NCBI GenBank assembly: GCA_026874595.1
Contig: CM049320.1
Span: 3,661,464 to 3,725,463 of the forward strand
Length of the DNA stretch: 64,000 nt
Direction of reading: 5' to 3'
Origin: Sipunculus nudus
Lineage: Eukaryota; Annelida; Sipuncula; Golfingiida; Sipunculidae
Under the pieces are notes generated by a model. The model ran no database searches and was not told where the DNA came from. It was given only the letters and a program-made list of their open reading frames with translations. Made by a program: the position numbers and the translations under genes. Positions 27,138 through 64,000 of the stretch are shown piece after piece (the stretch's first letter is position 1; each line of letters begins with the position of its first letter).

Positions 27138-30100
27138 TCGCCCTCTAGCGGACGAAAGGTACGTTGCGATTTCATACCTTTTCGATTCGCACAAGCCAAC
27201 ATTGTATCTGAAAACAAGACAAATCGACGAAAAAGAAGGAAGTCTGTAAATGCAGGACGACCGAATAAAAAGCGCGCGTTCTTTGATTCCAGATTATTTC
27301 CCAGTTTTAGAAATGTGCATCTAGCGGATGCCTTTGTCAGTTGATACATAGAAACACTGTCCAATCATGAAAGAATGACCTCTGCAAAATAATTAAATTC
27401 CACGGCCAACCTAGATGCATGAGACACAATACAACACGGCAATGTACAGGGAGAGATTTCAAGGCTGAAAGAAAACAGAAGAGTCTATTTGTTTTTCTGC
27501 GGCTTATATGTACTTTCTGCTATTGAGGGAAATGGATCGCTGATTTTGGAATGTTTATTACCCTGCCGATGCAGGGCTTCAGAAATTAATCATAGACTCA
27601 TTGTAGTGTTCCTCTCCACGGAAATCTTTAGTAAAAGGCGAAAGATTTGTACGTGGCTGAAGAGAAACCAGAGTGCACGTTAACCGAAACCACACCGACC
27701 CCTTGGAAGTCATTTTTCTTTTTTGTGGTATGCACAAGTTTCCTTCTCGTAAGATCAGACGCTTTCAATGCAGAACAGCAACATTGGCATATGCTTTGGT
27801 AGCTTTTCACGTATTTTCTGTAATTTAACAAATATGTTTTCACAACTCGCGTGGCTTACGCCATATTCTTTAAAACGTTTCCGTTACACTGACACAAATC
27901 AATGCAGTCAAAGGAAAGTAAAGGTGTATAGTCATTTTTTTCATCTTGTAGCCTGATATGTACGAATTGATTAAATGTATTTGACAGAAATTATTGTGTT
28001 TAGGTGTCCTCTAATGTGAAGCCTGTCTAGACAAGTTTCGATCCTGTAAAGGCCACAAGAAGCCTTTTATCGTTCAAGTGTCGCCCTCTAGCGGACGAAA
28101 GGTACGTTACGATTTCATACTTTTTCGATTCGCACAAGCCAACATTGTATCTGAAAACAAGACAAATCGACGAAAAAGAAGGAAGTCTGTAAATGCAGGA
28201 CGACCGAATAAAAATCGCGCGTTGTTTGATTCCAGATTATTTCCCAGTTTTAGAAATGTGCATCTAACGGATGCCTTTGTCAGTTGATACATAGAAACAC
28301 TGTCCAATCAGAAAAGAATGACCTCTGCAAAATAATTAAATTCCACGGCCAACCTAGATGCAAGAGATACAATACAACACGGCAATGTACAGGGAGAGAT
28401 TTCAAGGCTGAAAGAAAACAGAAGAGTCTATTTGTTTTTCTGCGGCCTAAATGTACTTTCTGCTATTGAGGGAAAGGGATCGCTGATTTTGAAATGTTTA
28501 TTACCCTGTCGATGCAGGGCTTCAGAAATTATTCATAGACTCATTGTAGTGTTCCTCTCCACGGAAATCTTTAGTAAAAGGCGAAAGATTTGTACGTGGC
28601 TGAAGAGAAACCAGAGTGCACGCTAACCGAAACCACACCGACCCCTTGGAAGTCATTTTTCTTTTTTGTGGTATGCACAAGTTTCCTTCTCGTAAGATCA
28701 GACGCTTTCAATGCAGAACAGCAACATTGGCATATGCTTTGGTAGCTTTTCACGTATTTTCTGTAATTTAACAAATATGTTTCCACAACTCGCGTAGGTA
28801 CTACGCCATATACTATAACACGTTTCCGTTACACTGAAACAAATCCATGCAGTAAAAGGAAAGTAAAGTGTATAGTCATTTTTTGCATCTCGTAGCCTGT
28901 TGTGTACCAGCTGATTACATTTATTTGACGGAAACTATTGTGGTTAGGTTTCCTGCAATGTGGAGCCTGTCTAGACAAGTTTCGATCCTGTTAAGGCCTC
29001 AAGAAGCCTTATATCGTTCCCGTGTCGCCCTCTAGCGGACGAAAGGTACGTTGCGATTTCATATCTTTTCGATTCGCACAAGCAAACATTATATCTGAAA
29101 ACAAGACAAATCGACGAAAAAGAAGGAAGCCTATCAATGCAGGACGACCGAATAAAAAGCGCGCGTTCTTTGATTCCAGATTATTTCCCAGTTTTAGAAA
29201 TGTGCATCTAACGGATGCCTTTGTCAGTTGATACATAGAAACACTGTCTAATCAGAAAAGAATGACCTCTGCAAAATAATTAAATTCCACGGCCAACCTA
29301 GATGCATGAGATACAATACAACATGGCAATGTACAGGGAGAGATTTCAAGGCTGAAAGAAAACAGAAGAGTATTTGTTTTTCTGCGGCTTAAATGTACTT
29401 TCTGCTATTGAGGGGAAGGGATCGCTGATTTTGAAATGTTTATTACCCTGCCGATGCAGGGCTTCAGAAATAATTCATAGACTCATTGTAGTGTTTCTCT
29501 CCACGGAAATCTTTAGTAAAAGGCGAAAGATTTGTACGTGGCTGAAGAGAAACCAGAGTGCACGCTAACCGAAACCACACCGACCCCTTGGAAGGCATTT
29601 TTCTTTTTTGTGGTATGCACAAGATTCCTTCTCGTAAGATCAGACGCTTTCAATGCAGAACAGTAACATTGGCATATCCTTTGGTAGCTTTTCATGTATT
29701 TTCTGTAATTTAACAAATATGTTTCCACAACTCGCGTAGCTACTACGCCATATACTATAACACGTTTCCGTTACACTGAAACAAATCCATGCAGTCAAAG
29801 GAAAGTAAAGTGTATAGTCATTTTTTGCATCTCGTAGCCTGTTGTGTACCAGTTGATTACATTTATTTGACAGAAACTATTGTGGTTAGGTTTCCTGCAA
29901 TGTGGAGCCTGTCTAGACATGTTTCGATCCTGTTAAGGCTGCAAGAAGCCTTATATCGTTATACCTTTTCGATTCGCACAAGCCAACATTGTATCTGAAA
30001 ACAAGACAAATCGACGAAAAAGAAGGAAGTCTGTAAATGCAGGACGACCGAATAAAAAGCGCGCGTTCTTTGATTCCAGATTATTTCCCAGTTTTAGAAA

Positions 30101-33100
30101 TGTGCATCTAACGGATGCGTTTGTCAGTTGATTCATAGAAACACTGTCCAATCAGAAAAGAATGACCTCTGCAAAATAATTAATTTCCCACGGCCACCCT
30201 AGATGCATGAGACACAATACAACACGGCAATGTACAGGGAGAGATTTCAAGGCTGAAAGAAAACAGAAGAGTCTATTTTTTCCTGCGGCTTAAATGTACT
30301 TTCTGCTATTGAGGGAAAGGGATTGCTGATTTTGGAATGTTTATTACCCTGCCGATGCAGGGCTTCAGAAATTAATCATAGACTCATTGTAGTGTTCCTC
30401 TCCACGGAAATCTTTAGTAAAAGGCGAAAGATTTGTACGTGGCTGAAGAGAAACCAGAGTGCACGATATCCGAAAGCACACCGACCCCTTGGAAGGCATT
30501 TTTCTTTTTTGTGGTATGCACAAATTACCTTCTCGTAAGATCAGACGCTTTCAATGCAGAACAGCAACATTGGCATATGCTTAGCTAGCTTTTAACGTAT
30601 TTTCTGTAATTTAACAAATATGTTTCACACCTCGCGTAGCTACTACGCCATATTCTATAACACGTTTCCGTTACACTAAAACAAATCAAAGCAGTCAAAG
30701 GAAAGTAAAGGTGTATAGTCATTTTTTTTGCATCTCGTAGCCTGTTGTGTACGAATTGATTAAATGTATTTGACAGAAATTATTCTGTTTAGGTTTCCTG
30801 CAATGTGGAGCCTGTCTAGACAAGTTTTGATCCTGTTAAGGCTACAAGAAGCCTTATATCGTTCCCGTGTCGCCCTCTAGCGGACGAAAGGTACGTAACG
30901 ATTTCATATCTTTTCGATTCGCACAAGCCAACATTATATCTGAAAACAAGACAAATCGACGAAAATGAAGGAAGCCTATCAATGCAGGACGACCGAATAA
31001 AAAGCGCGCGTTCTTTGATTCCAAATTATTTCCCAGTTTTAGAAATGTGCATCTAACGGATGCCTTTGTCAGTTGATACATAGAAACACTGTCCAATCAG
31101 AAAAGAATGACCTCTGCAAAATAATTCAATTCCACGGCCAACCTAGATGCATGAGATACAATACAACACGGCAATGTACAGGGAGAGATTTCAAGGCTGA
31201 AAGAAAACAGAAGAGTCTATTTGTTTTTCTGCGGCTTAAATGTACTTTCTGCTATTGAGGGGAAGGGATCGCGGATTTTGAAATGTTTATTACCCTGCCA
31301 ATGCAGGGCTTCAGAAATTAATCATAGACTCATTGTTGTGTTCCTCTCCACGGAAATCTTTAGTAAAAGGCGAAAGATTTGTACGTGACTGAAGAGAAAC
31401 CAGAGTGCACGCTAACCGAAACCACACCGACCCTTTGGAAGGTATTTTTCTTTTTTGTGGTATGCACAAGTTTCCTTCTCGTAAGATCAGACGCTTTCAA
31501 TGCAGAACAGTAACATTGGCATATGCTTTGGTAGCTTTTCACGTATTTTCTGTAATTTAACAAATATTTTTCCACAACTCGCGTAGCTACTACGCCATAT
31601 ACCATAACACGTTTTAGTTCCATGCAGTCAAAGGAAAGTAAAGTGTATAGTCATTTTTTTTGCATCTCGTAGCCTTTTGTGTACCAGTTGATTACATTGA
31701 CTTGACTGAAACTATCGTGGTTAGGTTTCCTGCAATGTGGAGCCTGTCTAGACAAGTTTCGATCCTGTTAAGGCCACAAGAAGCCTTTTATCGTTCCCGT
31801 GTCGCCCTCCGGCGGACAAAAGGTACGTTACGATTTGACAACTTGTAATTTAACAAATATTTTTTCACAACTCGCGTAGCTACTACGCCATATTCTATAA
31901 CACGTTTCGGTTACACTAAAACAAATCAAAGCAGTCAAAGGAAAGCAAAGTGTATAGTCATTTTTTGCATCTCGTAGCCTGTTGTGTACCAGTTAATTAC
32001 ATTTATTTGACAGAAACTATTGTGGTTAGGTTTCCTGCAATGTGGAGCCTGTCTAGACAAGTTTCGATCCTGTTAAGGCTACAAGAAGCCATATATCGTT
32101 CCCGTGTCGCCCTCTAGCGGACGAAAGGTACGTTGCGATTTCATACCTTTTCGATTCGCACAAGCCAACATTGTATCTGAAAACAAGACAAATCGACGAA
32201 AAAGAAGGAAGCCTGTAAATGCAGGACGACCGAATAAAAAGCGCGCGTTCTTTGATTCCAGATTATTTCCCAGTTTTAGAAATGTGCATCTAACGGATGC
32301 CTTTGTCAGTTGATACATAGAAACACTGTCCAATCAGAAAAGAATGACCTCTGCAAAATAATTCAATTCCACGGCCAACCTAGATGCATGAGATACAATA
32401 CAACACGGCAATGTACAGGGAGAGATTTCAAGGCTGAAAGAAAACAGAAGAGTCTATTTGTTTTTCTGCGGCTTATATGTACTTTCTGCTATTGAGGGGA
32501 AGGGATCGCTGATTTTGAAATGTTTATTACCCTGCCGATGCAGGGCTTCAGAAATTAATCATAGACTCATTGTTGTGTTCCTCTCCACGGAAATCTTTAG
32601 TAAAAGGCGAAAGATTTGTACGTGACTGAAGAAAAACCAGAGTGCACGCTAACCGAAACCACACCGACCCTTTGGAAGGTATTTTTCTTTTTTGTGGTAT
32701 GCACAAGTTTCCTTCTCGTAAGATCAGACGCTTTCAATGCAGAACAGTAACATTGGCATATGCTTTGGTAGCTTTTCACGTATTTTCTGTAATTTAACAA
32801 ATATTTTTACACAACTCGCGTAGCTACTACGCCATATACCATAACACGTTTTCAGTCCATGCAGTCAAAGGAAAGTAAAGTGTATAGTCATTTTTTTGCA
32901 TCTCGTAGCCTGTTGTGTACCAGTTGATACATTTACTTGACAGAAACTATTGTGGTTAGGTTTCCTGCAATGTGGAGCCTGTCTAGACAAGTTTCGATCC
33001 TGTTAAGGCCACAAGAAGCCTTTTATCGTTCCCGTGTCGCCCTCCGGCAGACAAAAGGTACATTACGATTTGACAACTTGTAATTTAACAAATATTTTTT

Positions 33101-33341
33101 CACAACTCGCGTAGCTACTACGCCATATTCTATAACACGTTTCGGTTACACTAAAACAAATCAAAGCAGTCAAAGGAAAGTAAAGTGTATAGTCATTTTT
33201 TGCATCTCGTAGCCTGTTGTGTACCAGTTGATTACATTTATTTGACAGAAACTATTGTGGTTAGGTTTCCTGCAATGTGGAGCCTGTCTAGACAAGTTTC
33301 GATCCTGTTAAGGCTACAAGAAGCCTTATATCGTTCCCGTG
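27138..33341 (+). repeat. Higher-order segment S, copy 1 (6,204 bp)
   Basis: Order of units: long at 27138, 28081, 29025, long without motif at 29961, long 30870 plus short 31802, long 32107 plus short 33037. The same order and spacing recur at 33342 and 49199. Shared oddities include the 42-bp motif deletion in the fourth unit, AAGCAAACATT or close variants in the third, and GGAAGTC in the first. Copy 1 directly abuts copy 2. Its last two dimers resemble the tail of segment L. Confidence 0.85.
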
Positions 33342-36300
33342 TCGCCCTCTAGCGGACGAAAGGTACGTTGCGATTTCATACCTTTTCGATTCGCACAAGC
33401 CAACATTGTATCTGAAAACAAGACAAATCGACGAAAAAGAAGGAAGTCTGTAAATGCAGGACGACCGAATAAAAAGCGCGCGTTCTTTGATTCCAGATTA
33501 TTTCCCAGTTTTAGAAATGTGCATCTAACGGATGCCTTTGTCAGTTGATACATAGAAACACTGTCCAATCAGAAAAGAATGACCTCTGCAAAATAATTAA
33601 ATTCCACGGCCAACCTAGATGCATGAGACACAATACAACACGGCAATGTACAGGGAGAGATTTCAAGGCTGAAAGAAAACAGAAGAGTCTATTTGTTTTT
33701 CTGCGGCTTATATGTACTTTCTGCTATTAAGGGAAATGGATCGCTGATTTTGGAATGTTTATTACCCTGCCGATGCAGGGCTTCAGAAATTAATCATAGA
33801 CTCATTGTAGTGTTCCTCTCCACGGAAATCTTTAGTAAAAGGCGAAAGATTTGTACGTGGCTGAAGAGAAACCAGAGTGCACGCTAACCGAAACCACACC
33901 GACCCCTTGGAAGTCATTTTTCTTTTTTGTGGTATGCACAAGTTTCCTTCTCGTAAGATCAGACGCTTTCAATGCAGAACAGCAACATTGGCATACGCTT
34001 TGGTAGCTTTTCACGTATTTTCTGTAATTTAACAAATATGTTTTCACAACTCGCGTGGCTTACGCCATATTCTTTAAAACGTTTCCGTTACACTGACACA
34101 AATCAATGCAGTCAAAGGAAAGTAAAGGTGTATAGTCATTTTTTTCATCTTGTAGCCTGATATGTACGAATTGATTAAATGTATTTGACAGAAATTATTG
34201 TGTTTAGGTGTCCTCTAATGTGAAGCCTGTCTAGACAAGTTTCGATCCTGTAAAGGCCACAAGAAGCCTTTTATCGTTCAAGTGTCGCCCTCTAGCGGAC
34301 GAAAGGTACGTTACGATTTCATACCTTTTCGATTCGCACAAGCCAACATTGTATCTGAAAACAAGACAAATCGACGAAAAAGAAGGAAGTCTGTAAATGC
34401 TGGACGACCGAATAAAAAGCGCGCGTTCTTTGATTCCAGATTATTTCCCAGTTTTAGAAATGTGCATCTAACGGATGCCTTTGTCAGTTTATACATAGAA
34501 ACACTGTCCAATCAGAAAAGAATGACCTCTGCAAAATAATTAAATTCCACGGCCAACCTAGATCCAAGAGATACAATACAACACGGCAATGTACAGGGAG
34601 AGATTTCAAGGCTGAAAGAAAACAGAAGAGTCTATTTGTTTTTCTGCGGCCTAAATGTACTTTCTGCTATTGAGGGAAAGGGATCGCTGATTTTGAAATG
34701 TTTATTACCCTGTCGATGCAGGGCTTCAGAAATTATTCATAGACTCATTGTAGTGTTCCTCTCCACGGAAATCTTTAGTAAAAGGCGAAAGATTTGTACG
34801 TGGCTGAAGAGAAACCAGAGTGCATGCTAACCGAAACCACACCGACCCCTTGGAAGTCATTTTTCTTTTTTGTGGTATGCACAAGTTTCCTTCTCGTAAG
34901 ATCAGACGCTTTCAATGCAGAACAGCAACATTGGCATATGCTTTGGTAGCTTTTCACGTATTTTCTATAATTTAACAAATATGTTTCCACAACTCGCGTA
35001 GGTACTACGCCATATACTATAACACGTTTCCGTTACACTGAAACAAATCCATGCAGTCAAAGGAAAGTTAAGTGTATAGTCATTTTTTGCATCTCGTAGC
35101 CTGTTGTGTACCAGCTGATTACATTTATTTGACGGAAACTATTGTGGTTAGGTTTCCTGCAATGTGGAGCCTGTCTAGACAAGTTTCGATCCTGTTAAGG
35201 CCTCAAGAAGCCTTATATCGTTCCCGTGTCGCCCTCTAGCGGACAAAAGGTACGTTGCGATTTCATATCTTTTCGATTCGCACAAGCCAACATTATATCT
35301 GAAAACAAGACAAATCGACGAAAAAGAAGGAAGCCTATCAATGCAGGACGACCGAATAAAAAGCGCGCGTTCTTTGATTCCAGATTATTTCCCAGTTTTA
35401 GAAATGTGCATCTAACGGATGCCTTTGTCAGTTGATACATAGAAACACTGTCTAATCAGATAAGAATGACCTCTGCAAAATAATTAAATTCCACGGCCAA
35501 CCTAGATGCATGAGATACAATACAACATGGCAATGTACAGGGAGAGAATTCAAGGCTGAAAGAAAACAGAAGAGTATTTGTTTTTCTGCGGCTTAAATGT
35601 ACTTTCTGCTATTGAGGGGAAAGGATCGCTGATTTTGAAATGTTTATTACCCTGCCGATGCAGGGCTTCAGAAATAATTCATAGACTCATTGTAGTGTTT
35701 CTCTCCACGGAAATCTTTAGTAAAAGGCGAAAGATTTGTACGTGGCTGAAGAGAAACCAGAGTGCACGCTAACCGAAACCACACCGACCGCTTGGAAGGC
35801 ATTTTTCTTTTTTGTGGTATGCACAAGTTTCCTTCTCGTAAGATCAGACGCTTTCATTGCAGAACAGTAACATTGGCATATCCTTTGGTAGCTTTTCATG
35901 TATTTTCTGTAATTTAACAAATATGTTTCCACAACTCGCGTAGCTACTACGCCATATACTATAACACGTTTCCGTTACACTGAAACAAATCCATGCAGTC
36001 AAAGGAAAGTAAAGTGTATAGTCATTTTTTGCATCTCGTAGCCTGTTGTGTACCAGTTGATTACATTTATTTGACAGAAACTATTGTGGTTAGGTTTCCT
36101 GCAATGTGGAGCCTGTCTAGACATGTTTCGATCCTGTTAAGGCTGCAAGAAGCCTTATATCGTTATACCTTTTCGATTCGCACAAGCCAACATTGTATCT
36201 GAAAACAAGACAAATCGACGAAAAAGAAGGAAGTCTGTAAATGCAGGACGACCGAATAAAAAGCGCGCGTTCTTTGATTCCAGATTATTTCCCAGTTGTA

Positions 36301-39300
36301 GAAATGTGCATCTAACGGATGCGTTTGTCAGTTGATTCATAGAAACACTGTCCAATCAGAAAAGAATCACCTCTGCAAAATAATTAATTTCCCACGGCCA
36401 CCCTAGATGCATGAGACACAATACAACACGGCAATGTACAGGGAGAGATTTCAAGGCTGAAAGAAAACAGAAGAGTCTATTTTTTCCTGCGGCTTAAATG
36501 TACTTTCTGCTATTGAGGGAAAGGGATTGCTGATTTTGGAATGTTTATTACCCTGCCGATGCAGGGCTTCAGAAATTAATCATAGACTCATTGTAGTGTT
36601 CCTCTCCACGGAAATCTTTAGTAAAAGGCGAAAGATTTGTACGTGGCTGAAGAGAAACCAGAGTGCACGCTATCCGAAAGCACACCGACCCCTTGGAAGG
36701 CATTTTTCTTTTTTGTGGTATGCACAAATTACCTTCTCGTAAGATCAGACGCTTTCAATTCAGAACAGCAACATTGGCATATGCTTAGCTAGCTTTTAAC
36801 GTATTTTCTGTAATTTAACAAATATGTTTCACACCTCGCGTAGCTACTACGCCATATTCTATAACACGTTTCCGTTACACTAAAACAAATCAAAGCAGTC
36901 AAAGGAAAGTAAAGGTGTATAGTCATTTTTTTTGCATCTCGTAGCCTGTTGTGTACGAATTGATTAAATGTATTTGACAGAAATTATTCTGTTTAGGTTT
37001 CCTGCAATGTGGAGCCTGTCTAGACAAGTTTCGATCCTGTTAAGGCCACAAGAAGCCTTATATCGTTCCCGTGTCGCCCTCTAGCGGACGAAAGGTACGT
37101 AACTATTTCATATCTTTTCGATTCGCACAAGCCAACATTATATCTGAAAACAAGACAAATCGACGAAAATGAAGGAAGCCTATCAATGCAGGACGACCGA
37201 ATAAAAAGCGCGCGTTCTTTGATTCCAAATTATTTCCCAGTTTTAGAAATGTGCATCTAACGGATGCCTTTGTCAGTTGATACATAGAAACACTGTCCAA
37301 TCAGAAAAGAATGACCTCTGCAAAATAATTAAATTCCACGGCCAACCTAGATGCATGAGATACAATACAACACGGCAATGTACAGGGAGAGATTTCAAGG
37401 CTGAAAGAAAACAGAAGAGTCTATTTGTTTTTCTGCGGCTTAAATGTACTTTCTGCTATTGAGGGGAAGGGATCGCGGATTTTGAAATGTTTATTACCCT
37501 GCCGATGCAGGGCTTCAGAAATTAATCATAGACTCATTGTTGTGTTCCTCTCCACGGAAATCTTTAGTAAAAGGCGAAAGATTTGTACGTGACTGAAGAG
37601 AAACCAGAGTGCACGCTAACCGAAACCACACCGACCCTTTGGAAGGTATTTTTCTTTTTTGTGGTATGCACAAGTTTCCTTCTCGTAAGATCAGACGCTT
37701 TCAATGCAGAACAGTAACATTGGCATATGCTTTGGTAGCTTTTCACGTATTTTCTGTAATTTAACAAATATTTTTCCACAACTCGCGTAGCTACTACGCC
37801 ATATACCATAACACGTTTTAGTTCCATGCAGTCAAAGGAAAGTAAAGTGTATAGTCATTTTTTTTGCATCTCGTAGCCTTTTGTGTACCAGTTGATTACA
37901 TTGACTTGACTGAAACTATCGTGGTTAGGTTTCCTGCAATGTGGAGCCTGTCTAGACAAGTTTCGATCCTGTTAAGGCCACAAGAAGCCTTTTATCGTTC
38001 CCGTGTCGCCCTCCGGCGGACAAAAGGTACGTTACGATTTGACAACTTGTAATTGAACAAATATTTTTTCACAACTCGCGTAGCTACTACGCCATATTCT
38101 ATAACACGTTTCGGTTACACTAAAACAAATCAAAGCAGTCAAAGGAAAGTAAAGTGTATAGTCATTTTTTGCATCTCGTAGCCTGTTGTGTACCAGTTAA
38201 TTACATTTATTTGACAGAAACTATTGTGGTTAGGTTTCCTGCAATGTGGAGCCTGTCTAGACAAGTTTCGATCCTGTTAAGGCTACAAGAAGCCTTATAT
38301 CGTTCCCGTGTCGCCCTCTAGCGGACGAAAGGTACGTTGCGATTTCATACCTTTTCGATTCGCACAAGCCAACATTGTATCTGAAAACAAGACAAATCGA
38401 CGAAAAAGAAGGAAGTCTGTAAATGCAGGACGACCGAATAAAAAGCGCGCGTTCTTTGATTCCAGATTATTTCCCAGTTTTAGAAATGTGCATCTAACGG
38501 ATGCCTTTGTCAGTTGATACATAGAAACACTGTCCAATCAGAAAAGAATGACCTCTGCAAAATAATTCAATTCCACGGCCAACCTAGATGCATGAGATAC
38601 AATACAACACGGCAATGTACAGGGAGAGATTTCAAGGCTGAAAGAAAACAGAAGAGTCTATTTGTTTTTCTGCGGATTATATGTACTTTCTGCTATTGAG
38701 GGGAAGGGATCGCTGATTTTGAAATGTTTATTACCCTGCCGATGCAGGGCTTCAGAAATTAATCATAGACTCATTGTTGTGTTCCTCTCCACGGAAATCT
38801 TTAGTAAAAGGCGAAAGATTTGTACGTGACTGAAGAGAAACCAGAGTGCACGCTAACCGAAACCACACCGACCCTTTGGAAGGTATTTTTCTTTTTTGTG
38901 GTATGCACAAGTTTCCTTCTCGTAAGATCAGACGCTTTCAATGCAGAACAGTAACATTGGCATATGCTTTGGTAGCTTTTCACGTATTTTCTGTAATTTA
39001 ACAAATATTTTTCCACAACTCGCGTAGCTACTACGCCATATACCATAACACGTTTTCGTTCCATGCAGTCAAAGGAAAGTAAAGTGTATAGTCATTTTTT
39101 TGCATCTCGTAGCCTGTTGTGTACCAGTTGATTACATTTACTTGACAGAAACTATTGTGGTTAGGTTTCCTGCAATGTGGAGCCTGTCTAGACAAGTTTC
39201 GATCCTGTTAAGGCCACAAGAAGCCTTTTATCGTTCCCGTGTCGCCCTCCGGCAGACAAAAGGTACGTTACGATTTGACAACTTGTAATTTAACAAATAT

Positions 39301-39546
39301 TTTTTCACAACTCGCGTAGCTACTACGCCATATTCTATAACACGTTTCGGTTACACTAAAACAAATCAAAGCAGTCAAAGGAAAGTAAAGTGTATAGTCA
39401 TTTTTTGCATCTCGTAGCCTGTTGTGTACCAGTTGATTACATTTATTTGACAGAAACTATTGTGGTTAGGTTTCCTGCAATGTGGAGCCTGTCTAGACAA
39501 GTTTCGATCCTGTTAAGGCTACAAGAAGCCTTATATCGTTCCCGTG
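33342..39546 (+). repeat. Higher-order segment S, copy 2 (6,205 bp)
   Basis: Units start at 33342, 34285, 35229, 36165 (motif-less), 37074 with short 38006, and 38311 with short 39242. This is the same layout as copy 1 at a constant offset of about 6,204 bp and copy 3 at about 15,857 bp. It starts the 15,857-bp larger frame (S plus L). Private changes such as GATCCAAGAG near 34561 and GTGCATGC near 34821 separate it from copy 3. Confidence 0.85.
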
Positions 39547-48500: not shown

Positions 48501-49198
48501 GCACGCTAACCGAAACCACACCGACCCTTTGGAAGGTATTTTTCTTTTTTGTGGTATGCACAAGTTTCCTTCTCGTAAGATCAGACGCTTTCAATGCAGA
48601 ACAGTAACATTGGCATATGCTTTGGTAGCTTTTCACGTATTTTCTGTAATTTAACAAATATTTTTACACAACTCGCGTAGCTACTACGCCATATACCATA
48701 ACACGTTTTCAGTCCATGCAGTCAAAGGAAAGTAAAGTGTATAGTCATTTTTTTGCATCTCGTAGCCTGTTGTGTACCAGTTGATACATTTACTTGACAG
48801 AAACTATTGTGGTTAGGTTTCCTGCAATGTGGAGCCTGTCTAGACAAGTTTCGATCCTGTTAAGGCCACAAGAAGCCTTTTATCGTTCCCGTGTCGCCCT
48901 CCGGCAGACAAAAGGTACATTACGATTTGACAACTTGTAATTTAACAAATATTTTTTCACAACTCGCGTAGCTACTACGCCATATTCTATAACACGTTTC
49001 GGTTACACTAAAACAAATCAAAGCAGTCAAAGGAAAGTAAAGTGTATAGTCATTTTTTGCATCTCGTAGCCTGTTGTGTACCAGTTGATTACATTTATTT
49101 GACAGAAACTATTGTGGTTAGGTTTCCTGCAATGTGGAGCCTGTCTAGACAAGTTTCGATCCTGTTAAGGCTACAAGAAGCCTTATATCGTTCCCGTG
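39547..49198 (+). repeat. Higher-order segment L, copy 1 (9,652 bp)
   Basis: Units: 39547 with short 40478; long 40783, 41726, 42656, 43603, 44550, 45496 with short 46428; 46733 with short 47659; and 47964 with short 48894. Compared with copy 2 it has one additional 1236-bp dimer (39547-40782) and one additional ~946-bp monomer. Monomers 44550 and 45496 share the private change TGTAATTCACAG at about 44446 and 45392, so the extra monomer is a local duplication. Confidence 0.85.
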
Positions 49199-52100: not shown

Positions 52101-55100
52101 GCAGGACGACCGAATAAAAAGCGCGCGTTCTTTGATTCCAGATTATTTCCCAGTTTTAGAAATGTGCATCTAACGGATGCGTTTGTCAGTTGATTCATAG
52201 AAACACTGTCCAATCAGAAAAGAATCACCTCTGCAAAATAATTAATTTCCCACGGCCACCCTAGATGCATGAGACACAATACAACACGGCAATGTACAGG
52301 GAGAGATTTCAAGGCTGAAAGAAAACAGAAGAGTCTATTTTTTCCTGCGGCTTAAATGTACTTTCTGCTATTGAGGGAAAGGGATTGCTGATTTTGGAAT
52401 GTTTATTACCCTGCCGATGGAGGGCTTCAGAAATTAATCATAGACTCATTGTAGTGTTCCTCTCCACGGAAATCTTTAGTAAAAGGCGAAAGATTTGTAC
52501 GTGGCTGAAGAGAAACCAGAGTGCACGCTATCCGAAAGCACACCGACCCCTTGGAAGGCATTTTTCTTTTTTGTGGTATGCACAAATTACCTTCTCGTAA
52601 GATCAGACGCTTTCAATGCAGAACAGCAACATTGGCATATGCTTAGCTAGCTTTTAACGTATTTTCTGTAATTTAACAAATATGTTTCACACCTCGCGTA
52701 GCTACTACGCCATATTCTATAACACGTTTCCGTTACACTAAAACAAATCAAAGCAGTCAAAGGAAAGTAAAGGTGTATAGTCATTTTTTTTGCATCTCGT
52801 AGCCTGTTGTGTACGAATTGATTAAATGTATTTGACAGAAATTATTCTGTTTAGGTTTCCTGCAATGTGGAGCCTGTCTAGACAAGTTTCGATCCTGTTA
52901 AGGCCACAAGAAGCCTTATATCGTTCCCGTGTCGCCCTCTAGCGGACGAAAGGTACGTAACTATTTCATATCTTTTCGATTCGCACAAGCCAACATTGTA
53001 TCTGAAAACAAGACAAATCGACGAAAATGAAGGAAGCCTATCAATGCAGGACGACCGAATAAAAAGCGCGCGTTCTTTGATTCCAAATTATTTCCCAGTT
53101 TTAGAAATGTGCATCTAACGGATGCCTTTGTCAGTTGATACATAGAAACACTGTCCAATCAGAAAAGAATGACCTCTGCAAAATAATTAAATTCCACGGC
53201 CAACCTAGATGCATGAGATACAATACAACACGGCAATGTACAGGGAGAGATTTCAAGGCTGAAAGAAAACAGAAGAGTCTATTTGTTTTTCTGCGGCTTA
53301 AATGTACTTTCTGCTATTGAGGGGAAGGGATCGCGGATTTTGAAATGTTTATTACCCTGCCGATGCAGGGCTTCAGAAATTAATCATAGACTCATTGTTG
53401 TGTTCCTCTCCACGGAAATCTTTAGTAAAAGGCGAAAGATTTGTACGTGACTGAAGAGAAACCAGAGTGCACGCTAACCGAAACCACACCGACCCTTTGG
53501 AAGGTATTTTTCTTTTTTGTGGTATGCACAAGTTTCCTTCTCGTAAGATCAGACGCTTTCAATGCAGAACAGTAACATTGGCATATGCTTTGGTAGCTTT
53601 TCACGTATTTTCTGTAATTTAACAAATATTTTTCCACAACTCGCGTAGCTACTACGCCATATACCATAACACGTTTTAGTTCCATGCAGTCAAAGGAAAG
53701 TAAAGTGTATAGTCATTTTTTTGCATCTCGTAGCCTTTTGTGTACCAGTTGATTACATTGACTTGACTGAAACTATCGTGGTTAGGTTTCCTGCAATGTG
53801 GAGCCTGTCTAGACAAGTTTCGATCCTGTTAAGGCCACAAGAAGCCTTTTATCGTTCCCGTGTCGCCCTCCGGCGGACAAAAGGTACGTTACGATTTGAC
53901 AACTTGTAATTTAACAAATATTTTTTCACAACTCGCGTAGCTACTACGCCATATTCTATAACACGTTTCGGTTACACTAAAACAAATCAAAGCAGTCAAA
54001 GGAAAGTAAAGTGTATAGTCATTTTTTGCATCTCGTAGCCCGTTGTGTACCAGTTGATTACATTTATTTGACAGAAACTATTGTGGTTAGGTTTCCTGCA
54101 ATGTGGAGCCTGTCTAGACAAGTTTCGATCCTGTTAAGGCTACAAGAAGCCTTATATCGTTCCCGTGTCGCCCTCTAGCGGACGAAAGGTACGTTGCGAT
54201 TTCATACCTTTTCGATTCGCACAAGCCAACATTGTATCTGAAAACAAGACAAATCGACGAAAAAGAAGGAAGTCTGTAAATGCAGGACGACCGAATAAAA
54301 AGCGCGCGTTCTTTGATTCCAGATTATTTCCCAGTTTTAGAAATGTGCATCTAACGGATGCCTTTGTCAGTTGATACATAGAAACACTGTCCAATCAGAA
54401 AAGAATGACCTCTGCAAAATAATTCAATTCCACGGCCAACCTAGATGCATGAGATACAATACAACACGGCAATGTACAGGGAGAGATTTCAAGGCTGAAA
54501 GAAAACAGAAGAGTCTATTTGTTTTTCTGCGGATTATATGTACTTTCTGCTATTGAGGGGAAGGGATCGCTGATTTTGAAATGTTTATTACCCTGCCGAT
54601 GCAGGGCTTCAGAAATTAATCATAGACTCATTGTTGTGTTCCTCTCCACGGAAATCTTTAGTAAAAGGCGAAAGATTTGTACGTGACTGAAGAGAAACCA
54701 GAGTGCACGCTAACCGAAACCACACCGACCCTTTGGAAGGTATTTTTCTTTTTTGTGGTATGCACAAGTTTCCTTCTCGTAAGATCAGACGCTTTCAATG
54801 CAGAACAGTAACATTGGCATATGCTTTGGTAGCTTTTCACGTATTTTCTGTAATTTAACAAATATTTTTCCACAACTCGCGTAGCTACTACGCCATATAC
54901 CATAACACGTTTTCGTTCCATGCAGTCAAAGGAAAGTAAAGTGTATAGTCATTTTTTTGCATCTCGTAGCCTGTTGTGTACCAGTTGATTACATTTACTT
55001 GACAGAAACTATTGTGGTTAGGTTTCCTGCAATGTGGAGCCTGTCTAGACAAGTTTCGATCCTGTTAAGGCCACAAGAAGCCTTTTATCGTTCCCATGTT

Positions 55101-55403
55101 GCCCTCCGGCAGACAAAAGGTACGTTACGATTTGACAACTTGTAATTTAACAAATATTTTTTCACAACTCGCGTAGCTACTACGCCATATTCTATAACAC
55201 GTTTCGGTTACACTAAAACAAATCAAAGCAGTCAAAGGAAAGTAAAGTGTATAGTCATTTTTTGCATCTCGTAGCCTGTTGTGTACCAGTTGATTACATT
55301 TATTTGACAGAAACTATTGTGGTTAGGTTTCCTGCAATGTGGAGCCTGTCTAGACAAGTTTCGATCCTGTTAAGGCTACAAGAAGCCTTATATCGTTCCC
55401 GTG
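49199..55403 (+). repeat. Higher-order segment S, copy 3 (6,205 bp)
   Basis: Units start at 49199, 50143, 51087, 52023 (motif-less), 52932 with short 53863, and 54168 with short 55099. The layout equals copies 1 and 2, and bases agree closely with copy 2 at an offset of 15,857-15,858. The short monomer at 55099 has further decay of its motif (CATGTTGCCC). Confidence 0.85.
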
Positions 55404-58400
55404 TCGCCCTCTAGCGGACGAAAGGTACGTTGCGATTTCATACCTTTTCGATTCGCACAAGCCAACATTGTATCTGAAAACAAGACAAATCGACGAAAAA
55501 GAAGGAAGTCTGTAAATGCAGGACGACCGAATAAAAAGCGCGCGTTCTTTGATTCCAGATTATTTCCCAGTTTTAGAAATGTGCATCTAACGGATGCCTT
55601 TGTCAGTTGATACATAGAAACACTGTCCAATCAGAAAAGAATGACCTCTGCAAAATAATTCAATTCCACGGCCAACCTTGATGCATGAGATACAATACAA
55701 CACGGCAATGTACAGGGAGAGATTTCAAGGCTGAAAGAAAACAGAAGAGTCTATTTGTTTTTCTGCGGATTATATGTACTTTCTGCTATTGAGGGGAAGG
55801 GATCGCTGATTTTGAAATGTTTATTACCCTGCCGATGCAGGGCTTCAGAAATTATTTATAGACTCATTGTTGTGTTCCTCTCCACGGAAATCTTTAGTAA
55901 AAGGCGAAAGATTTGTACGTGACTGAAGAGAAACCAGAGTGCACGCTAACCGAAACCACACCGACCCTTTGGAAGGTATTTTTCTTTTTTGTGGTATCCA
56001 CAAGTTTCCTTCTCGTAAGATCAGACGCTTTCAATGCAGAACAGTAACATTGGCATATGCTTTGGTAGCTTTTCACGTATTTTCTGTAATTTAACAAATA
56101 TGTTTTCACAACTCGCGTGGCTTACGCCATATTCTTTAAAACGTTTCCGTTACACTGACACAAATCAATGCAGTCAAAGGAAAGTAAAGGTGTATAGTCA
56201 TTTTTTTCATCTTGTAGCCTGATATGTACGAATTGATTAAATGTATTTGACAAAAATTATTGTGTTTAGGTGTCCTCTAATGTGAAGCCTGTCTAGACAA
56301 GTTTCGATCCTGTAAAGATCACAAGAAGCCTTTTATCGTTCAAGTGTCGCCCTCTAGCGGACAAATGGTACGTTGCGATTTCATACCTTTTCGATTCGCA
56401 CAAGCCAACATTGTATCTGAAAACAAGACAAATCGACGAAAAAGAAGAACCCTATCAATGCAGGACGACCGAAAAAAAAGCGCGCGTTCTTTGATTCCAG
56501 ATTATTTCCCAGTTTTAGAAATGTGCATCTAACGGATGCCTTTGTCAGTTGATACATAGAAACACTGTCCAATCAGAAAAGAATGACCTCTGCAAAATAA
56601 TTAAATTCCACGGCCAACCTAGATGCATGAGATACAATACAACACGGCAATGTACAGGGAGAGATTTCAAGGCTGAAAGAAAACAGAAGAGTCTATTTGT
56701 TTTTCTGCGGCTTATATGTACTTTCTTCTATTGAGGGAAAGGGATCGCTGATTTTGAAATGTTTATTACCATGCCGATGCATGGCTTCAGAAATTAATCT
56801 TAGACTCATTGTAGTGTTCCTCTCCACGGAAATCTTTAGTAAAAGGCGAAAGATTTGTACGTGGCTGAAGAAAAACCAGAGTGCACGCTAACCGAAACCA
56901 CACCGACCCCTTGGAAGGCATTTTTCTTTTTTTGTGGTATGCACAAGTTTCCTTCTCGTAAGATCAGACGCTTTCAATGCAGAACAGTAACATTGGCATA
57001 TGCTTTGGTAGCTTTTCACGTATTTTCTGTAATTTAACAAATATTTTTCCACAACTCGCGTAGCTACTACGCCATATACTATAACACGTTTTTGTTCCAT
57101 GCAGTCAAAGGAAAGTAAAGGTGTATAGTCATTTTTTTTATCTTGTAGCCTGATATGTACGAATTGATTAAATGTATTTGACAGAAATTATTGTGTTTAG
57201 GTGTCCTCTAATGTGAAGCCTGTCTAGACAAGTTTCGATCCTGTAAAGGCCACAAGAAGCCTTTTATCGTTCAAGTGTCGCCCTCTAGCGGACGAAAGGT
57301 ACGTTACGATTTCATACCTTTTCGATTCGCACAAGCCAACATTGTATCTGAAAACAAGACAAATCGACGAAAAAGAAGGAAGTCTGTAAATGCAGGTCGA
57401 CCGAATAAAAATCGCGCGTTCTTTGATTCCAGATTATTTCCCAGTTTTAGAAATGTGCATCTAACGGATGCCTTTGTCAGTTGATACATAGAAACACTGT
57501 CCAATCAGAAAAGAATGACCTCTGCAAAATAATTAAATTCCACGGCCAACCTAGATGCAAGAGATACAATACAACACGGCAATGTACAGGGAGAGATTTC
57601 AAGGCTGAAAGAAAACAGAAGAGTCTATTTGTTTTTCTGCGGCCTAAATGTACTTTCTGCTATTGAGGGGAAGGGATCGCTGATTTTGAAATGTTTATTA
57701 CCCTGCCGATGCAGGGCTTCAGAAATTATTCATAGACTCATTGTAGTGTTCCTCTCCACGGAAATCTTTAGTAAAAGGCGAAAGATTTGTACGTGGCTGA
57801 AGAGAAACCAGAGTGCACGCTAACCGAAACCACACCGACCCCTTGGAAGTCATTTTTCTTTTTTGTGGTATGCACAAGTTTCCTTCTCGTAAGATCAGAC
57901 GCTTTCAATGCAGAACAGTAACATTGGCATATGCTTTGGTAGCTTTTCACGTATTTTCTGTAATTTAACAAATATGTTTCCACAACTCGCGTAGGTACTA
58001 CGCCATATACTATAACACGTTTCCGTTACACTGAAACAAATCCATGCAGTCAAAGGAAAGTAAAGTGTATAGTCATTTTTTTTTGCATCTCGTAGCCTGT
58101 TGTGTACGAATTTATCAAATGTATTTGACAGAAATTATTCTGTTTAGGTTTCCTGCAATGTGGAGCCTGTCTAGACAAGTTTCGATCCTGTTAAGGCCAC
58201 AAGAAGCCTTATATCGTTCCCGTGTCGCCCTCTAGCGGACGAAAGGTACGTTACGATTTCATACCTTTTCGATTCGCACAAGCCAACATTATATCTGAAA
58301 ACAAGACAAATCGACGAAAAAGAAGGAAGCCTATCAATGCAGGACGACCGAATAAAAAGCGCGCGTTCTTTGATTCCAGATTATTTCCCAGTTTTAGAAA

Positions 58401-61400
58401 TGTGCATCTAACGGATGCCTTTGTCAGTTGATTCATAGAAACACTGTCCAATCAGAAAAGAATAACCTCTGCAAAATAATTAATTTCCCACGGCCACCCT
58501 AGATGCATGAGACACAATACAACACGGCAATGTACAGGGAGAGATTTCAAGGCTGAAAGAAAACAGAAGAGTCTATTTGTTTTTCTGCGGCTTAAATGTA
58601 CTTTCTGCTATTGAGGGGAAGGGATCGCTGATTTTGAAATGTTTATTACCCTGCCGATACAGGGCTTCAGAAATTAATCATAGACTCATTGTAGTGTTCC
58701 TCTCCACGGAAATCTTTAGTAAAAGGCGAAAGATTTGTACGTGGCTGAAGAGAAACCAGAGTGCACGCTAACCGAAACCACACCGACCCCTTGGAAGGCA
58801 TTTTTCTTTTTTGTGGTATGCACAAGTTTCCTTCTCGTAAGATCAGACGCTTTCAATGCAGAACAGCAACATTGGCATATGCTTAGCTAGCTTTTAACGT
58901 ATTTTCTGTAATTTAACAAATATGTTTCACACCTCGCGTAGCTACTACGCCATATTCTATAACACGTTTCCGTTACACTAAAACAAATCAAAGCAGTCAA
59001 AGGAAAGTAAAGGTGTATAGTCATTTTTTTTGCATCTCGTAGCCTGTTGTGTACGAATTGATTAAATGTATTTGACAGAAATTATTCTGTTTAGGTTTCC
59101 TGCAATGTGGAGCCTGTCTAGACAAGTTTTGATCCTGTTAAGGCCACAAGAAGCCTTATATCGTTCCCGTGTCGCCCTCTAGCGGACGAAAGGTACGTAA
59201 CGATTTCATATCTTTTCGATTCGCACAAGCCAACATTATATCTGAAAACAAGACAAATCGACGAAAATGAAGGAAGCCTATCAATGCAGGACGACCGAAT
59301 AAAAAGCGCGCGTTCTTTGATTCCAAATTATTTCCCAGTTTTAGAAATGTGCATCTAACGGATGCCTTTGTCAGTTGATACATAGAAACACTGTCCAATC
59401 AGAAAAGAATGACCTCTGCAAAATAATTCAATTCCACGGCCAACCTAGATGCATGAGATACAATACAACACGGCAATGTACAGGGAGAGATTTCAAGGCT
59501 GAAAGAAAACAGAAGAGTCTATTTGTTTTTCTGCGGCTTAAATGTACTTTCTGCTATTGAGGGGAAGGGATCGCGGATTTTGAAATGTTTATTACCCTGC
59601 CGATGCAGGGCTTCAGAAATTAATCATAGACTCATTGTTGTGTTCCTCTCCACGGAAATCTTTAGTAAAAGGCGAAAGATTTGTACGTGACTGAAGAAAA
59701 ACCAGAGTGCACGCTAACCGAAACCACACCGACCCTTTGGAAGGTATTTTTCTTTTTTGTGGTATGCACAAGTTTCCTTCTCGTAAGATCAGACGCTTTC
59801 AATGCAGAACAGTAACATTGGCATATGCTTTGGTAGCTTTTCACGTATTTTCTGTAATTTAACAAATATTTTTCCACAACTCGCGTAGCTACTACGCCAT
59901 ATACCATAACACGTTTTAGTTCCATGCAGTCAAAGGAAAGTAAAGTGTATAGTCATTTTTTTTGCATCTCGTAGCCTTTTGTGTACCAGTTGATTACATT
60001 GACTTGACTGAAACTATCGTGGTTAGGTTTCCTGCAATGTGGAGCCTGTCTAGACAAGTTTCGATCCTGTTAAGGCCACAAGAAGCCTTTTATCGTTCCC
60101 GTGTCGCCCTCCGGCGGACAAAAGGCACGTTACGATTTGACAACTTGTAATTTAACAAATATTTTTTCACAACTCGCGTAGCTACTACGCCATATTCTAT
60201 AACACGTTTCGGTTACACTAAAACAAATCAAAGCAGTCAAAGGAAAGTAAAGTGTATAGTCATTTTTTGCATCTCGTAGCCTGTTGTGTACCAGTTGATT
60301 ACATTTATTTGACAGAAACTATTGTGGTTAGGTTTCCTGCAATGTGGAGCCTGTCTAGACAAGTTTCGATCCTGTTAAGGCTACAAGAAGCCTTATATCG
60401 TTCCCGTGTCGCCCTCTAGCGGACGAAAGGTACGTTGCGATTTCATACCTTTTCGATTCGCACAAGCCAACATTGTATCTGAAAACAAGACAAATCGACG
60501 AAAAAGAAGGAAGTCTGTAAATGCAGGACGACCGAATAAAAAGCGCGCGTTCTTTGATTCCAGATTATTTCCCAGTTTTAGAAATGTGCATCTAACGGAT
60601 GCCTTTGTCAGTTGATACATAGAAACACTGTCCAATCAGAAAAGAATGACCTCTGCAAAATAATTCAATTCCACGGCCAACCTAGATGCATGAGATACAA
60701 TACAACACGGCAATGTACAGGGAGAGATTTCAAGGCTGAAAGAAAACAGAAGAGTCTATTTGTTTTTCTGCGGATTATATGTACTTTCTGCTATTGAGGG
60801 GAAGGGATCGCTGATTTTGAAATGTTTATTACCCTGCCGATGCAGGGCTTCAGAAATTAATCATAGACTCATTGTTGTGTTCCTCTCCACGGAAATCTTT
60901 AGTAAAAGGCGAAAGATTTGTACGTGACTGAAGAGAAACCAGAGTGCACGCTAACCGAAACCACACCGACCCTTTGGAAGGTATTTTTCTTTTTTGTGGT
61001 ATGCACAAGTTTCCTTCTCGTAAGATCAGACGCTTTCAATGCAGAACAGTAACATTGGCATATGCTTTGGTAGCTTTTCACGTATTTTCTGTAATTTAAC
61101 AAATATTTTTCCACAACTCGCGTAGCTACTACGCCATATACTATAACACGTTTTCGTTCCATGCAGTCAAAGGAAAGTGTATAGTCATTTTTTTGCATCT
61201 CGTAGCCTGTTGTGTACCAGTTGATTACATTTACTTGACAGAAACTATTGTGGTTAGGTTTCCTGCAATGTGGAGCCTGTCTAGACAAGTTTCGATCCTG
61301 TTAAGGCCACAAGAAGCCTATTATCGTTCCCGTGTCGCCCTCCGGCAGACAAAAGGTACGTTACGATTTGACAACTTGTAATTTAACAAATATTTTTTCA

Positions 61401-62874
61401 CAACTCGCGTAGCTACTACGCCATATTCTATAACACGTTTCGGTTACACTAAAACAAATCAAAGCAGTCAAAGGAGAGCAAAGTGTATAGTCATTTTTTG
61501 CATCTCGTAGCCTGTTGTGTACCAGTTAATTACATTTATTTGACAGAAACTATTGTGGTTAGGTTTCCTGCAATGTGGAGCCTGTCTAGACAAGTTTCGA
61601 TCCTGTTAAGGCTACAAGAAGCCATATATCGTTCCCGTGTCGCCCTCTAGCGGACGAAAGGTACGTTGCGATTTCATACCTTTTCGATTCGCACAAGCCA
61701 ACATTGTATCTGAAAACAAGACAAATCGACGAAAAAGAAGGAAGTCTGTAAATGCAGGACGACCGAATAAAAAGCGCGCGTTCTTTGATTCCAGATTATT
61801 TCCCAGTTTTAGAAATGTGCATCTAACGGATGCCTTTGTCAGTTGATACATAGAAACACTGTCCAATCAGAAAAGAATGACCTCTGCAAAATAATTCAAT
61901 TCCACGGCCAACCTAGATGCATGAGATACAATACAACACGGCAATGTACAGGGAGAGATTTCAAGGCTGAAAGAAAACAGAAGAGTCTATTTGTTTTTCT
62001 GCGGCTTATATGTACTTTCTGCTATTGAGGGGAAGGGATCGCTGATTTTGAAATGTTTATTACCCTGCCGATGCAGGGCTTCAGAAATTAATCATAGACT
62101 CATTGTTGTGTTCCTCTCCACGGAAATCTTTAGTAAAAGGCGAAAGATTTGTACGTGACTGAAGAGAAACCAGAGTGCACGCTAACCGAAACCACACCGA
62201 CCCTTTGGAAGGTATTTTTCTTTTTTGTGGTATGCACAAGTTTCCTTCTCGTAAGATCAGACGCTTTCAATGCAGAACAGTAACATTGGCATATGCTTTG
62301 GTAGCTTTTCACGTATTTTCTGTAATTTAACAAATATTTTTACACAACTCGCGTAGCTACTACGCCATATACCATAACACGTTTTCAGTCCATGCAGTCA
62401 AAGGAAAGTAAAGTGTATAGTCATTTTTTTGCATCTCGTAGCCTGTTGTGTACCAGTTGATACATTTACTTGACAGAAACTATTGTGGTTAGGTTTCCTG
62501 CAATGTGGAGCCTGTCTAGACAAGTTTCGATCCTGTTAAGGCCACAAGAAGCCTTTTATCGTTCCCGTGTCGCCCTCCGGCAGACAAAAGGTACATTACG
62601 ATTTGACAACTTGTAATTTAACAAATATTTTTTCACAACTCGCGTAGCTACTACGCCATATTCTATAACACGTTTCGGTTACACTAAAACAAATCAAAGC
62701 AGTCAAAGGAAAGTAAAGTGTATAGTCATTTTTTGCATCTCGTAGCCTGTTGTGTACCAGTTGATTACATTTATTTGACAGAAACTATTGTGGTTAGGTT
62801 TCCTGCAATGTGGAGCCTGTCTAGACAAGTTTCGATCCTGTTAAGGCTACAAGAAGCCTTATATCGTTCCCGTG
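55404..62874 (+). repeat. Higher-order segment L, copy 2 (7,471 bp)
   Basis: Units: 55404 (chimeric long), 56347, 57278, 58225, 59172 with short 60104, 60409 with short 61335, and 61640 with short 62570. It matches segment L copy 1 in order but is 2,181 bp shorter. The first unit joins the 5' part of the 39547-type monomer to the 3' part of the 40783-type monomer. Shared rarities with copy 1 include GAAGCCATATATCG (near 47942 and 61618) and the 5-bp deletion giving GGAAAGTGTATAG. Confidence 0.85.
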
Positions 62875-64000
62875 TCGCCCTCTAGCGGACGAAAGGTACG
62901 TTGCGATTTCATACCTTTTCGATTCGCACAAGCCAACATTGTATCTGAAAACAAGACAAATCGACGAAAAAGAAGGAAGTCTGTAAATGCAGGACGACCG
63001 AATAAAAAGCGCGCGTTCTTTGATTCCAGATTATTTCCCAGTTTTAGAAATGTGCATCTAACGGATGCCTTTGTCAGTTGATACATAGAAACACTGTCCA
63101 ATCAGAAAAGAATGACCTCTGCAAAATAATTCAATTCCACGGCCAACCTAGATGCATGAGACACAATACAACACGGCAATGTACAGGGAGAGATTTCAAG
63201 GCTGAAAGAAAACAGAAGAGTCTATTTGTTTTTCTGCGGCTTATATGTACTTTCTGCTATTAAGGGAAATGGATCGCTGATTTTGGAATGTTTATTACCC
63301 TGCCGATGCAGGGCTTCAGAAATTAATCATAGACTCATTGTAGTGTTCCTCTCCACGGAAATCTTTAGTAAAAGGCGAAAGATTTGTACGTGGCTGAAGA
63401 GAAACCAGAGTGCACGCTAACCGAAACCACACCGACCCCTTGGAAGTCATTTTTCTTTTTTTGTGGTATGCACAAGTTTCCTTCTCGTAAGATCAGACGC
63501 TTTCAATGCAGAACAGCAACATTGGCATACGCTTTGGTAGCTTTTCACGTATTTTCTGTAATTTAACAAATATGTTTTCACAACTCGCGTGGCTTACGCC
63601 ATATTCTTTAAAACGTTTCCGTTACACTGACACAAATCAATGCAGTCAAAGGAAAGTAAAGGTGTATAGTCATTTTTTTCATCTTGTAGCCTGATATGTA
63701 CGAATTGATTAAATGTATTTGACAGAAATTATTGTGTTTAGGTGTCCTCTAATGTGAAGCCTGTCTAGACAAGTTTCGATCCTGTAAAGGCCACAAGAAG
63801 CCTTTTATCGTTCAAGTGTCGCCCTCTAGCGGACGAAAGGTACGTTACGATTTCATACCTTTTCGATTCGCACAAGCCAACATTGTATCTGAAAACAAGA
63901 CAAATCGACGAAAAAGAAGGAAGTCTGTAAATGCAGGACGACCGAATAAAAAGCGCGCGTTCTTTGATTCCAGATTATTTCCCAGTTTTAGAAATGTGCA
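62875..64000 (+). repeat. Start of higher-order segment S, copy 4 (cut by window edge)
   Basis: Long monomer at 62875 and the start of another at 63818, matching 49199 and 50143 at an offset of 13,676. It shows that the higher-order pattern continues beyond the window. Confidence 0.8.

What the first reader, a model, noticed from the sequence alone, without database searches (positions are those of the whole stretch)
27138..64000. Nested higher-order repeat structure in the satellite
Phase-mark spacing shows a 6.2-kb segment at 27138, 33342, 49199 and (start) 62875, and a larger S+L frame of 15,857 bp (33342-49198) and 13,676 bp (49199-62874). Shared rare variants confirm this: GAAGCCATATATCG sits just before the phase mark at 32107, 47964 and 61640, and a motif-deleted monomer is the fourth unit of each complete S segment. 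Well-resolved higher-order repeats with dimers nested inside them are best known in primate alpha satellite.
Basis: seen in the sequence. Interest (0 to 1): 0.75.

Follow-up and report, generated by a model that had tools for sequence, protein, structure and literature searches.

The report
Nested tandem array of U5 genes
What looked like a non-coding satellite with nested repeats is a long row of at least 53 copies of the gene for U5, an RNA that cells need for splicing, and part of the row has been copied in blocks of 6 to 15 genes, most likely by unequal recombination.

Summary
The higher-order repeat (HOR) is real. Units in the same slot of S1/S2/S3 are at least 98.8% identical (mean 99.45); units in different slots average 95.8%, at most 98.6%. 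S2/S3 are 99.74% identical, L1/L2 99.84%, the two long frames 99.80%.

The interpretation needs correcting: this is not an anonymous satellite. Each of the 53 complete units (about 900-950 or 1,207-1,249 bp) carries one full-length U5 spliceosomal snRNA gene on the minus strand, 83-97 bits against a gathering score of 40. The "dimer" is a unit with a second copy of a ~300-bp upstream block that holds no U5 (24 of 53 units).

The frames have 6, 15 and 13 units. The long ones differ by two one-unit steps (1,236 and 946 bp). S1 is best read as a collapsed long frame. This fits unequal crossing over in a gene array under concerted evolution, as in human RNU2.

U5 copies left of the HOR look more decayed: 11 of 18 have a broken pair, against 5 of 35 from S1 on (p 0.001 on copies, 0.10 on distinct sequences). 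Species, expression and assembly correctness could not be tested.

The parts
6506..64000 (-). Tandem array of U5 snRNA gene units; left edge at 6506, right end beyond the window
   Evidence: Edge compared with a normal unit; 53 complete units; 53 Rfam U5 hits
7338..7454 (-). First (leftmost) U5 gene of the 53; lowest score, three broken pairs
   Evidence: Rfam RF00020, 83.2 bits
63297..63413 (-). Last U5 gene of the 53 in the window
   Evidence: Rfam RF00020, 94.4 bits
6955..27176 (-). 18 units left of the HOR (units 0-17), no long frame; 11 of 18 U5 copies have a broken pair
27138..33341 (-). S1: 6-unit frame, best read as a long frame with an internal deletion
   Evidence: Alignments; mosaic unit 22
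30909..32145 (-). Mosaic unit 22 of S1: E-type up to 31943, penultimate-type at 31946 and 32091
   Evidence: Diagnostic sites against units 28, 36, 37, 49, 50
33342..49198 (-). Frame 1: 15 units, 15,857 bp (S2 + L1)
49199..62874 (-). Frame 2: 13 units, 13,676 bp (S3 + L2); 99.80% identical to frame 1 with two one-unit gaps
55443..56385 (-). Fusion unit 45 of frame 2: unit-30-like to 56045, unit-31-like from 56102
62875..64000 (-). Start of the next frame, identical to the start of frame 2
   Evidence: 0 mismatches in 1,126 bp
33340..33358 (-). Example of the phase mark, a CTCF-like motif (49 minus-strand copies in the array)
   Evidence: consensus recalled from memory

Best explanation
The region is a tandem array of U5 spliceosomal snRNA genes, probably of an animal, all on the minus strand, one gene per unit. 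Shown by sequence: 53 full-length U5 genes, two unit types, frames of 6, 15 and 13 genes, and mosaic units at joints between frames. Inferred: misaligned homologous recombination (unequal crossing over, with gene conversion) added and removed whole units, and exchanges many units long spread one block, which made the HOR. The array is probably kept because cells need much U5 RNA; homogenisation renews the interior while copies near the left edge decay. The CTCF-like motif upstream of most genes is probably a regulatory or boundary element (weakest step).
For: 53 of 53 complete units carry a full-length U5 hit, the only family above gathering score in the window. 52 of 53 copies keep the loop GCCUUUUAC; 97.8% of helix pair cells in the 21 distinct sequences are standard pairs. 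Frames differ by one-unit steps and have mosaic units at the joints. Best-match identity is 98.2-99.3% in the three unit groups left of the HOR and 99.5-99.8% in the five from S1 on. Weak support for a real gene end: a 3'-box-like match with 2 mismatches just downstream of U5 (4.5% of core windows and 2.2% of shuffles do as well, consensus recalled).
Against: U5 diversity between copies (pi 0.0246) is hardly lower than in the adjoining spacer (0.0264 downstream, 0.0314 upstream), and its 3' hairpin is very variable. Covariation does not exceed shuffles (190/500). The edge-interior contrast is not significant on distinct sequences (p 0.10). No PSE was identified. No expression, read or second-genome data.
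Confidence: 0.8

Rival explanations
1. Assembly artefact: true repeats of U5 units exist, but the order and length of the frames were made by misassembly of near-identical repeats.
For: Stretches of 100% identity between frames (units 37-39 against 50-52; 1,126 bp) are as long as, or longer than, short-read lengths.
Against: Frames 1 and 2 differ by 28 substitutions and two unit-sized gaps, S1 by 41-43 substitutions, and a fusion unit has its own breakpoint; simple duplication of one contig would not give these.
Confidence: 0.1
2. A U5-derived satellite: an array that began as a U5 gene but is now mostly inert, with the functional U5 genes elsewhere.
For: Between-copy diversity in U5 is close to that of the adjoining spacer; 16 of 53 copies have a broken pair.
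Against: Full-length, high-scoring U5 in 53 of 53 units; loop intact in 52 of 53; apical stem-loop has 1 variable site in 29 nt, as few as in 2.1% of windows; fewer broken copies in the recently copied frames (5 of 35 against 11 of 18).
Confidence: 0.15
3. The frames were made by replication-based or rolling-circle (extrachromosomal circle) amplification and reinsertion rather than unequal crossing over.
For: Block copying of 6-15 units in the same orientation is also what a reinserted circle would give.
Against: Mosaic units with joints in homologous positions and one-unit steps are the plainest mark of homologous exchange; but the two processes leave similar traces and were not separated here.
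Confidence: 0.15
4. A centromeric satellite of the alpha-satellite kind with HORs.
For: Same formal pattern: frames of divergent monomers, more alike inside than at the edge.
Against: The unit is a known gene of ~1 kb, and the array edge lies in the window. Centromeric location could not be tested.
Confidence: 0.03

Closest known systems
Human/primate RNU2 array (PMC3795722, passages)
   Same: Tandem units each with one Pol II spliceosomal snRNA gene; 6-82 copies of a 6.1-kb unit; cited work there describes concerted evolution and remodelled junctions
   Different: U2, not U5; [quoted passage not shown]
Fish U2-U5 snDNA clusters (PMC3464664, passages)
   Same: Tandemly repeated U5 genes with spacers; linkage of U5 arrays to chromosomes by FISH
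   Different: U2 and U5 alternate in one ~1-kb unit; here no other RNA family reaches gathering score. U5 pi there 0.009, here 0.0246
U snRNA tandem families in morabine grasshoppers (PMC7754599, passages)
   Same: U5 counted among tandem multigene families
   Different: Unit order not resolved in the passages seen; HORs there are reported for satellites
NBPF 3mer HORs (PMC10475015, passages)
   Same: Higher-order repeats built of functional units, with variant frames lacking units
   Different: Protein-domain repeats within genes, ~1.6-kb units, 3-mers
Primate alpha-satellite HORs (named as HOR prototype in PMC10475015; details recalled)
   Same: Frames of divergent monomers; frame variants differ by whole monomers
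   Different: 171-bp centromeric monomers without a gene

Membership tests
U5 spliceosomal snRNA genes | Match to the Rfam U5 covariance model over its length | tested here: met
   53 hits, model 1-117/117, 83.2-96.5 bits, gathering 40
U5 spliceosomal snRNA genes | Conserved loop GCCUUUUAC | tested here: met
   52 of 53 copies; copy at 22924 has C46U
U5 spliceosomal snRNA genes | snRNA promoter (PSE) and 3' box | tested here: inconclusive
   3'-box-like match with 2 mismatches (consensus recalled); no PSE assigned
U5 spliceosomal snRNA genes | Transcription and assembly into snRNP | not testable with these tools
   No RNA data
Tandem snRNA array under concerted evolution | Head-to-tail units, each with a gene, more alike than independent evolution allows | tested here: inconclusive
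   Head-to-tail units and recent copying shown; concerted evolution needs a second species, not available
Higher-order repeat | Same-slot units more alike than neighbouring units | tested here: met
   99.45% against 95.78%
Alpha-satellite-like centromeric HOR | Non-coding monomers of ~171 bp | tested here: not met
   Units of 900-1,249 bp with a U5 gene
Alpha-satellite-like centromeric HOR | Centromere location | not testable with these tools
   No chromosome context
CTCF binding site | Match to the core consensus and binding by CTCF | tested here: inconclusive
   16 of 19 positions of a recalled consensus; 50 matches against 3.96 expected, but 49 of these are tandem copies of one motif; binding not testable

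The most novel reading that the evidence does not exclude
The higher-order frame is a maintained cassette of different U5 RNAs. Its slots carry 8 (frame 1) and 10 (frame 2) distinct U5 sequences, the same in 10 of 13 matched slots, with one compensatory change (103-114), and most genes are paired with a CTCF-like motif that is conserved in the distal block while its duplicated proximal copy has decayed. Recombination in frame-sized steps would then copy a set of splicing-RNA isoforms as one block.
Probability: 0.12. Interest if true: 0.65.

Novelty: new variant of a known kind. Interest (0 to 1): 0.45.

Why it matters
Long arrays of near-identical snRNA genes are hard to assemble, so how unequal exchange acts on an essential RNA gene array can seldom be read unit by unit. 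Here joints of single exchanges can be placed within a few to some tens of bases. Slot-specific U5 variants allow a test of which copies are expressed, and the contrast between edge and interior allows a test of whether homogenisation clears damaged genes. It also warns that a 'satellite with HOR' can be an RNA gene array: an RNA-family search should come before a satellite call.

Tried and rejected
Non-coding satellite: rejected after the Rfam scan.

Selection on U5 as a whole, from diversity between copies: not clear. Pi is 0.0246 in the gene, 0.0264 downstream and 0.0314 in the 142 nt upstream, but 0.0586 in the single/distal upstream blocks and 0.0395 in the proximal ones. Only the 29-nt apical stem-loop is unusually invariant; the 3' hairpin has 7 variable sites in 18 nt, and 99.2% of equal windows have no more. 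Covariation: within shuffles.

PSE: the stretch -92 to -68 varies little, as do some downstream spacer stretches; not assigned.

Phase mark: CCGCTAGAGGGCGACAC is exact in 48 of 53 single/distal blocks and only 1% of equal windows are as invariant; the proximal copies read CCGCCGGAGGGCGACAC, exact in 11 of 24.

Site-specific transposon at the edge: the array's left edge falls at U5 nt 1-5, beside an ORF that looks to me, from memory, like the C-terminus of a non-LTR reverse transcriptase. Pfam gives no hit to its two open pieces; there is one junction; no U5 remainder was found left of 7338 at E up to 1. Not claimed. PMC4640811 (2015; passages) says only Keno and Utopia (U2), Dada-U1 and Dada-U6 had been reported to target snRNA genes.

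Species: two exact-pattern scans of viral contigs and one of genome contigs gave 0 matches; the genome search did not complete.

Literature: nine searches listed no paper that I recognised as a HOR-structured snRNA array. I opened passages of nine papers; some searches showed capped lists. This is no proof of absence.

Full report
WHAT WAS CLAIMED.

I split the array at CCTTTTCGATTCGCACAAGCC (54 sites, so 53 complete units) and compared all units pairwise (identity over aligned bases, gaps not counted). From unit 18 on, the best match of a unit is usually the unit in the same slot of another frame. Same-slot identity across S1/S2/S3 is at least 98.83% (mean 99.45%); different slots average 95.78%, at most 98.62%. 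Alignments give S1/S2 99.31%, S1/S3 99.34%, S2/S3 99.74%, L1/L2 99.84% and frame1/frame2 99.80% (28 mismatches in 13,674 aligned bases). The last 1,126 bases of the window equal the start of frame 2. There are 24 collinear best-hit steps, against a mean of 1.0 and a maximum of 9 in 5,000 shuffles of unit order.

WHAT THE UNIT IS. At gathering thresholds Rfam finds only U5 spliceosomal RNA in the window: 53 full-length hits, all on the minus strand, one per complete unit, 83.2-96.5 bits. The 53 copies make 21 distinct sequences. The three copies that I folded form the expected stem-loops; two of them fold better than most shuffles (z -2.6 and -2.7), the leftmost copy does not stand out (z -1.4). 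In the 21 distinct sequences 97.8% of pair cells are standard pairs, and 52 of 53 copies keep the loop GCCUUUUAC. The 'satellite' is an array of U5 snRNA genes.

UNIT ANATOMY. On the coding strand the order is upstream block, U5 (117 nt), downstream spacer. 29 of 53 units have one upstream block (301-305 bp in 24 of the 29); 24 have two, the proximal copy being 287-305 bp. The blocks hold no U5 hit. The phase mark lies in the block. In single and distal blocks CCGCTAGAGGGCGACAC is exact in 48 of 53, and 1% of 17-base windows are as invariant; in proximal blocks it has become CCGCCGGAGGGCGACAC, exact in 11 of 24. It fits 16 of 19 positions of the CTCF consensus as I recall it: 50 matches in the window against 3.96 expected, 49 of them tandem copies of this one motif. 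One and the same 42-bp deletion removes it from 4 units: the third unit of S1, S2 and S3, and unit 16 outside the HOR.

HOW THE FRAMES RELATE. S1 has 6 units, frame 1 has 15, frame 2 has 13. Frame 2 lacks 1,236 bp and 946 bp of frame 1, each one unit long. Unit 45 of frame 2 matches unit 30 at 14 of 14 sites up to 56045 and unit 31 from 56102 on (as far as the listing, cut at 140 columns, shows); unit 48 matches unit 34, not 35, at 17 of 17 sites. Unit 22 of S1 matches the E-type units up to 31943 and the penultimate units (37, 50) at 31946 and 32091. Against units 28 and 37 alone, 25 of 29 sites are 28-like and 4 are 37-like; two of these four (31127, 31851) are places where unit 28 departs from the other E-type units. 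Unit 23 then matches the last unit (38) rather than unit 29 at 6 of 6 sites. S1 is thus best read as a long frame that lost 7 or 9 units in one exchange. The joint rests on two sites plus unit 23, and conversion could mimic it. For the one-unit differences the direction (gain or loss) is open.

EDGE AND INTERIOR. Mean best identity is 98.34, 99.29 and 98.17% in the three unit groups left of the HOR and 99.48-99.84% in the five groups from S1 on; units 10 and 11 on the left are identical, so the left part is not free of recent copying. U5 copies with at least one broken pair: 11 of 18 left, 1 of 6 in S1, 2 of 15 in frame 1, 2 of 13 in frame 2, 0 of 1 in frame 3. Fisher p is 0.001 on copies and 0.10 on distinct sequences (8 of 12 against 3 of 12). 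The only loop change, C46U, is on the left. This fits homogenisation renewing the interior while edge copies decay; it is suggestive, not proof.

RESULTS AGAINST A STRONG SELECTION STORY. U5 diversity between copies (pi 0.0246) is close to that of the adjoining spacer (0.0264 downstream, 0.0314 upstream), though lower than in the upstream blocks (0.0586 and 0.0395). The 3' hairpin is among the most variable windows. Covariation is within shuffles (190 of 500), with one compensatory case (pair 103-114, copy at 56768). The 29-nt apical stem-loop has 1 variable site; 2.1% of windows have as few.

MECHANISM AND COMPARISON. Best explanation: unequal crossing over and conversion in a tandem RNA gene array. 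Unit gain or loss and frame copying are shown by sequence; the process and the need for much U5 RNA are inferred. Parallels: human RNU2 (6.1-kb unit, 6-82 copies; PMC3795722, passages); fish U2-U5 clusters (PMC3464664, passages); U5 among tandem families in grasshoppers (PMC7754599, passages); Drosophila has seven distinguishable U5 genes (PMC4291461, passages). PMC12400953 (passages) says HORs sometimes arise by unequal exchange. HORs of functional units exist in NBPF genes (PMC10475015, passages). Nine searches in one open-access library listed no paper that I recognised as a HOR-structured snRNA array.

LIMITS. The species is unknown; 'probably an animal' is inference. The genome search did not complete. 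There were no reads, no expression data and no right-hand continuation. The CTCF and 3'-box consensuses are recalled.

VERDICT. Real and well resolved, but a gene array rather than a centromere-like satellite: a HOR-organised U5 array, a new variant of a known kind.

Noticed in passing
6032-6510: The array's left edge falls at U5 nt 1-5 (6506-6510), directly beside a minus-strand ORF that resembles, from memory, the C-terminus of a non-LTR reverse transcriptase; Pfam gave no hit.
   Followed up: partly
25025-26231: Unit 16 has the same 42-bp phase-mark deletion as the third unit of each S segment, although its nearest relative is unit 12 (97.8%); hints at local gene conversion.
   Followed up: partly
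444-743 and 3757-4056: Direct repeat pairs about 3.3 kb apart left of the array (94% over 300 nt, more pairs nearby), with families of 90-94-nt motifs in 6 to 8 copies; looks like a separate repetitive element.
   Followed up: no
18464-20349: Two neighbouring units (10 and 11) with 100% identity in the otherwise less homogeneous left part: a recent one-unit duplication.
   Followed up: no
22924-23040: The only U5 copy with a change in the invariant loop (C46U).
   Followed up: no
1-328: Two tandem copies of a ~179-bp unit at the window's left end, 75% matches.
   Followed up: no
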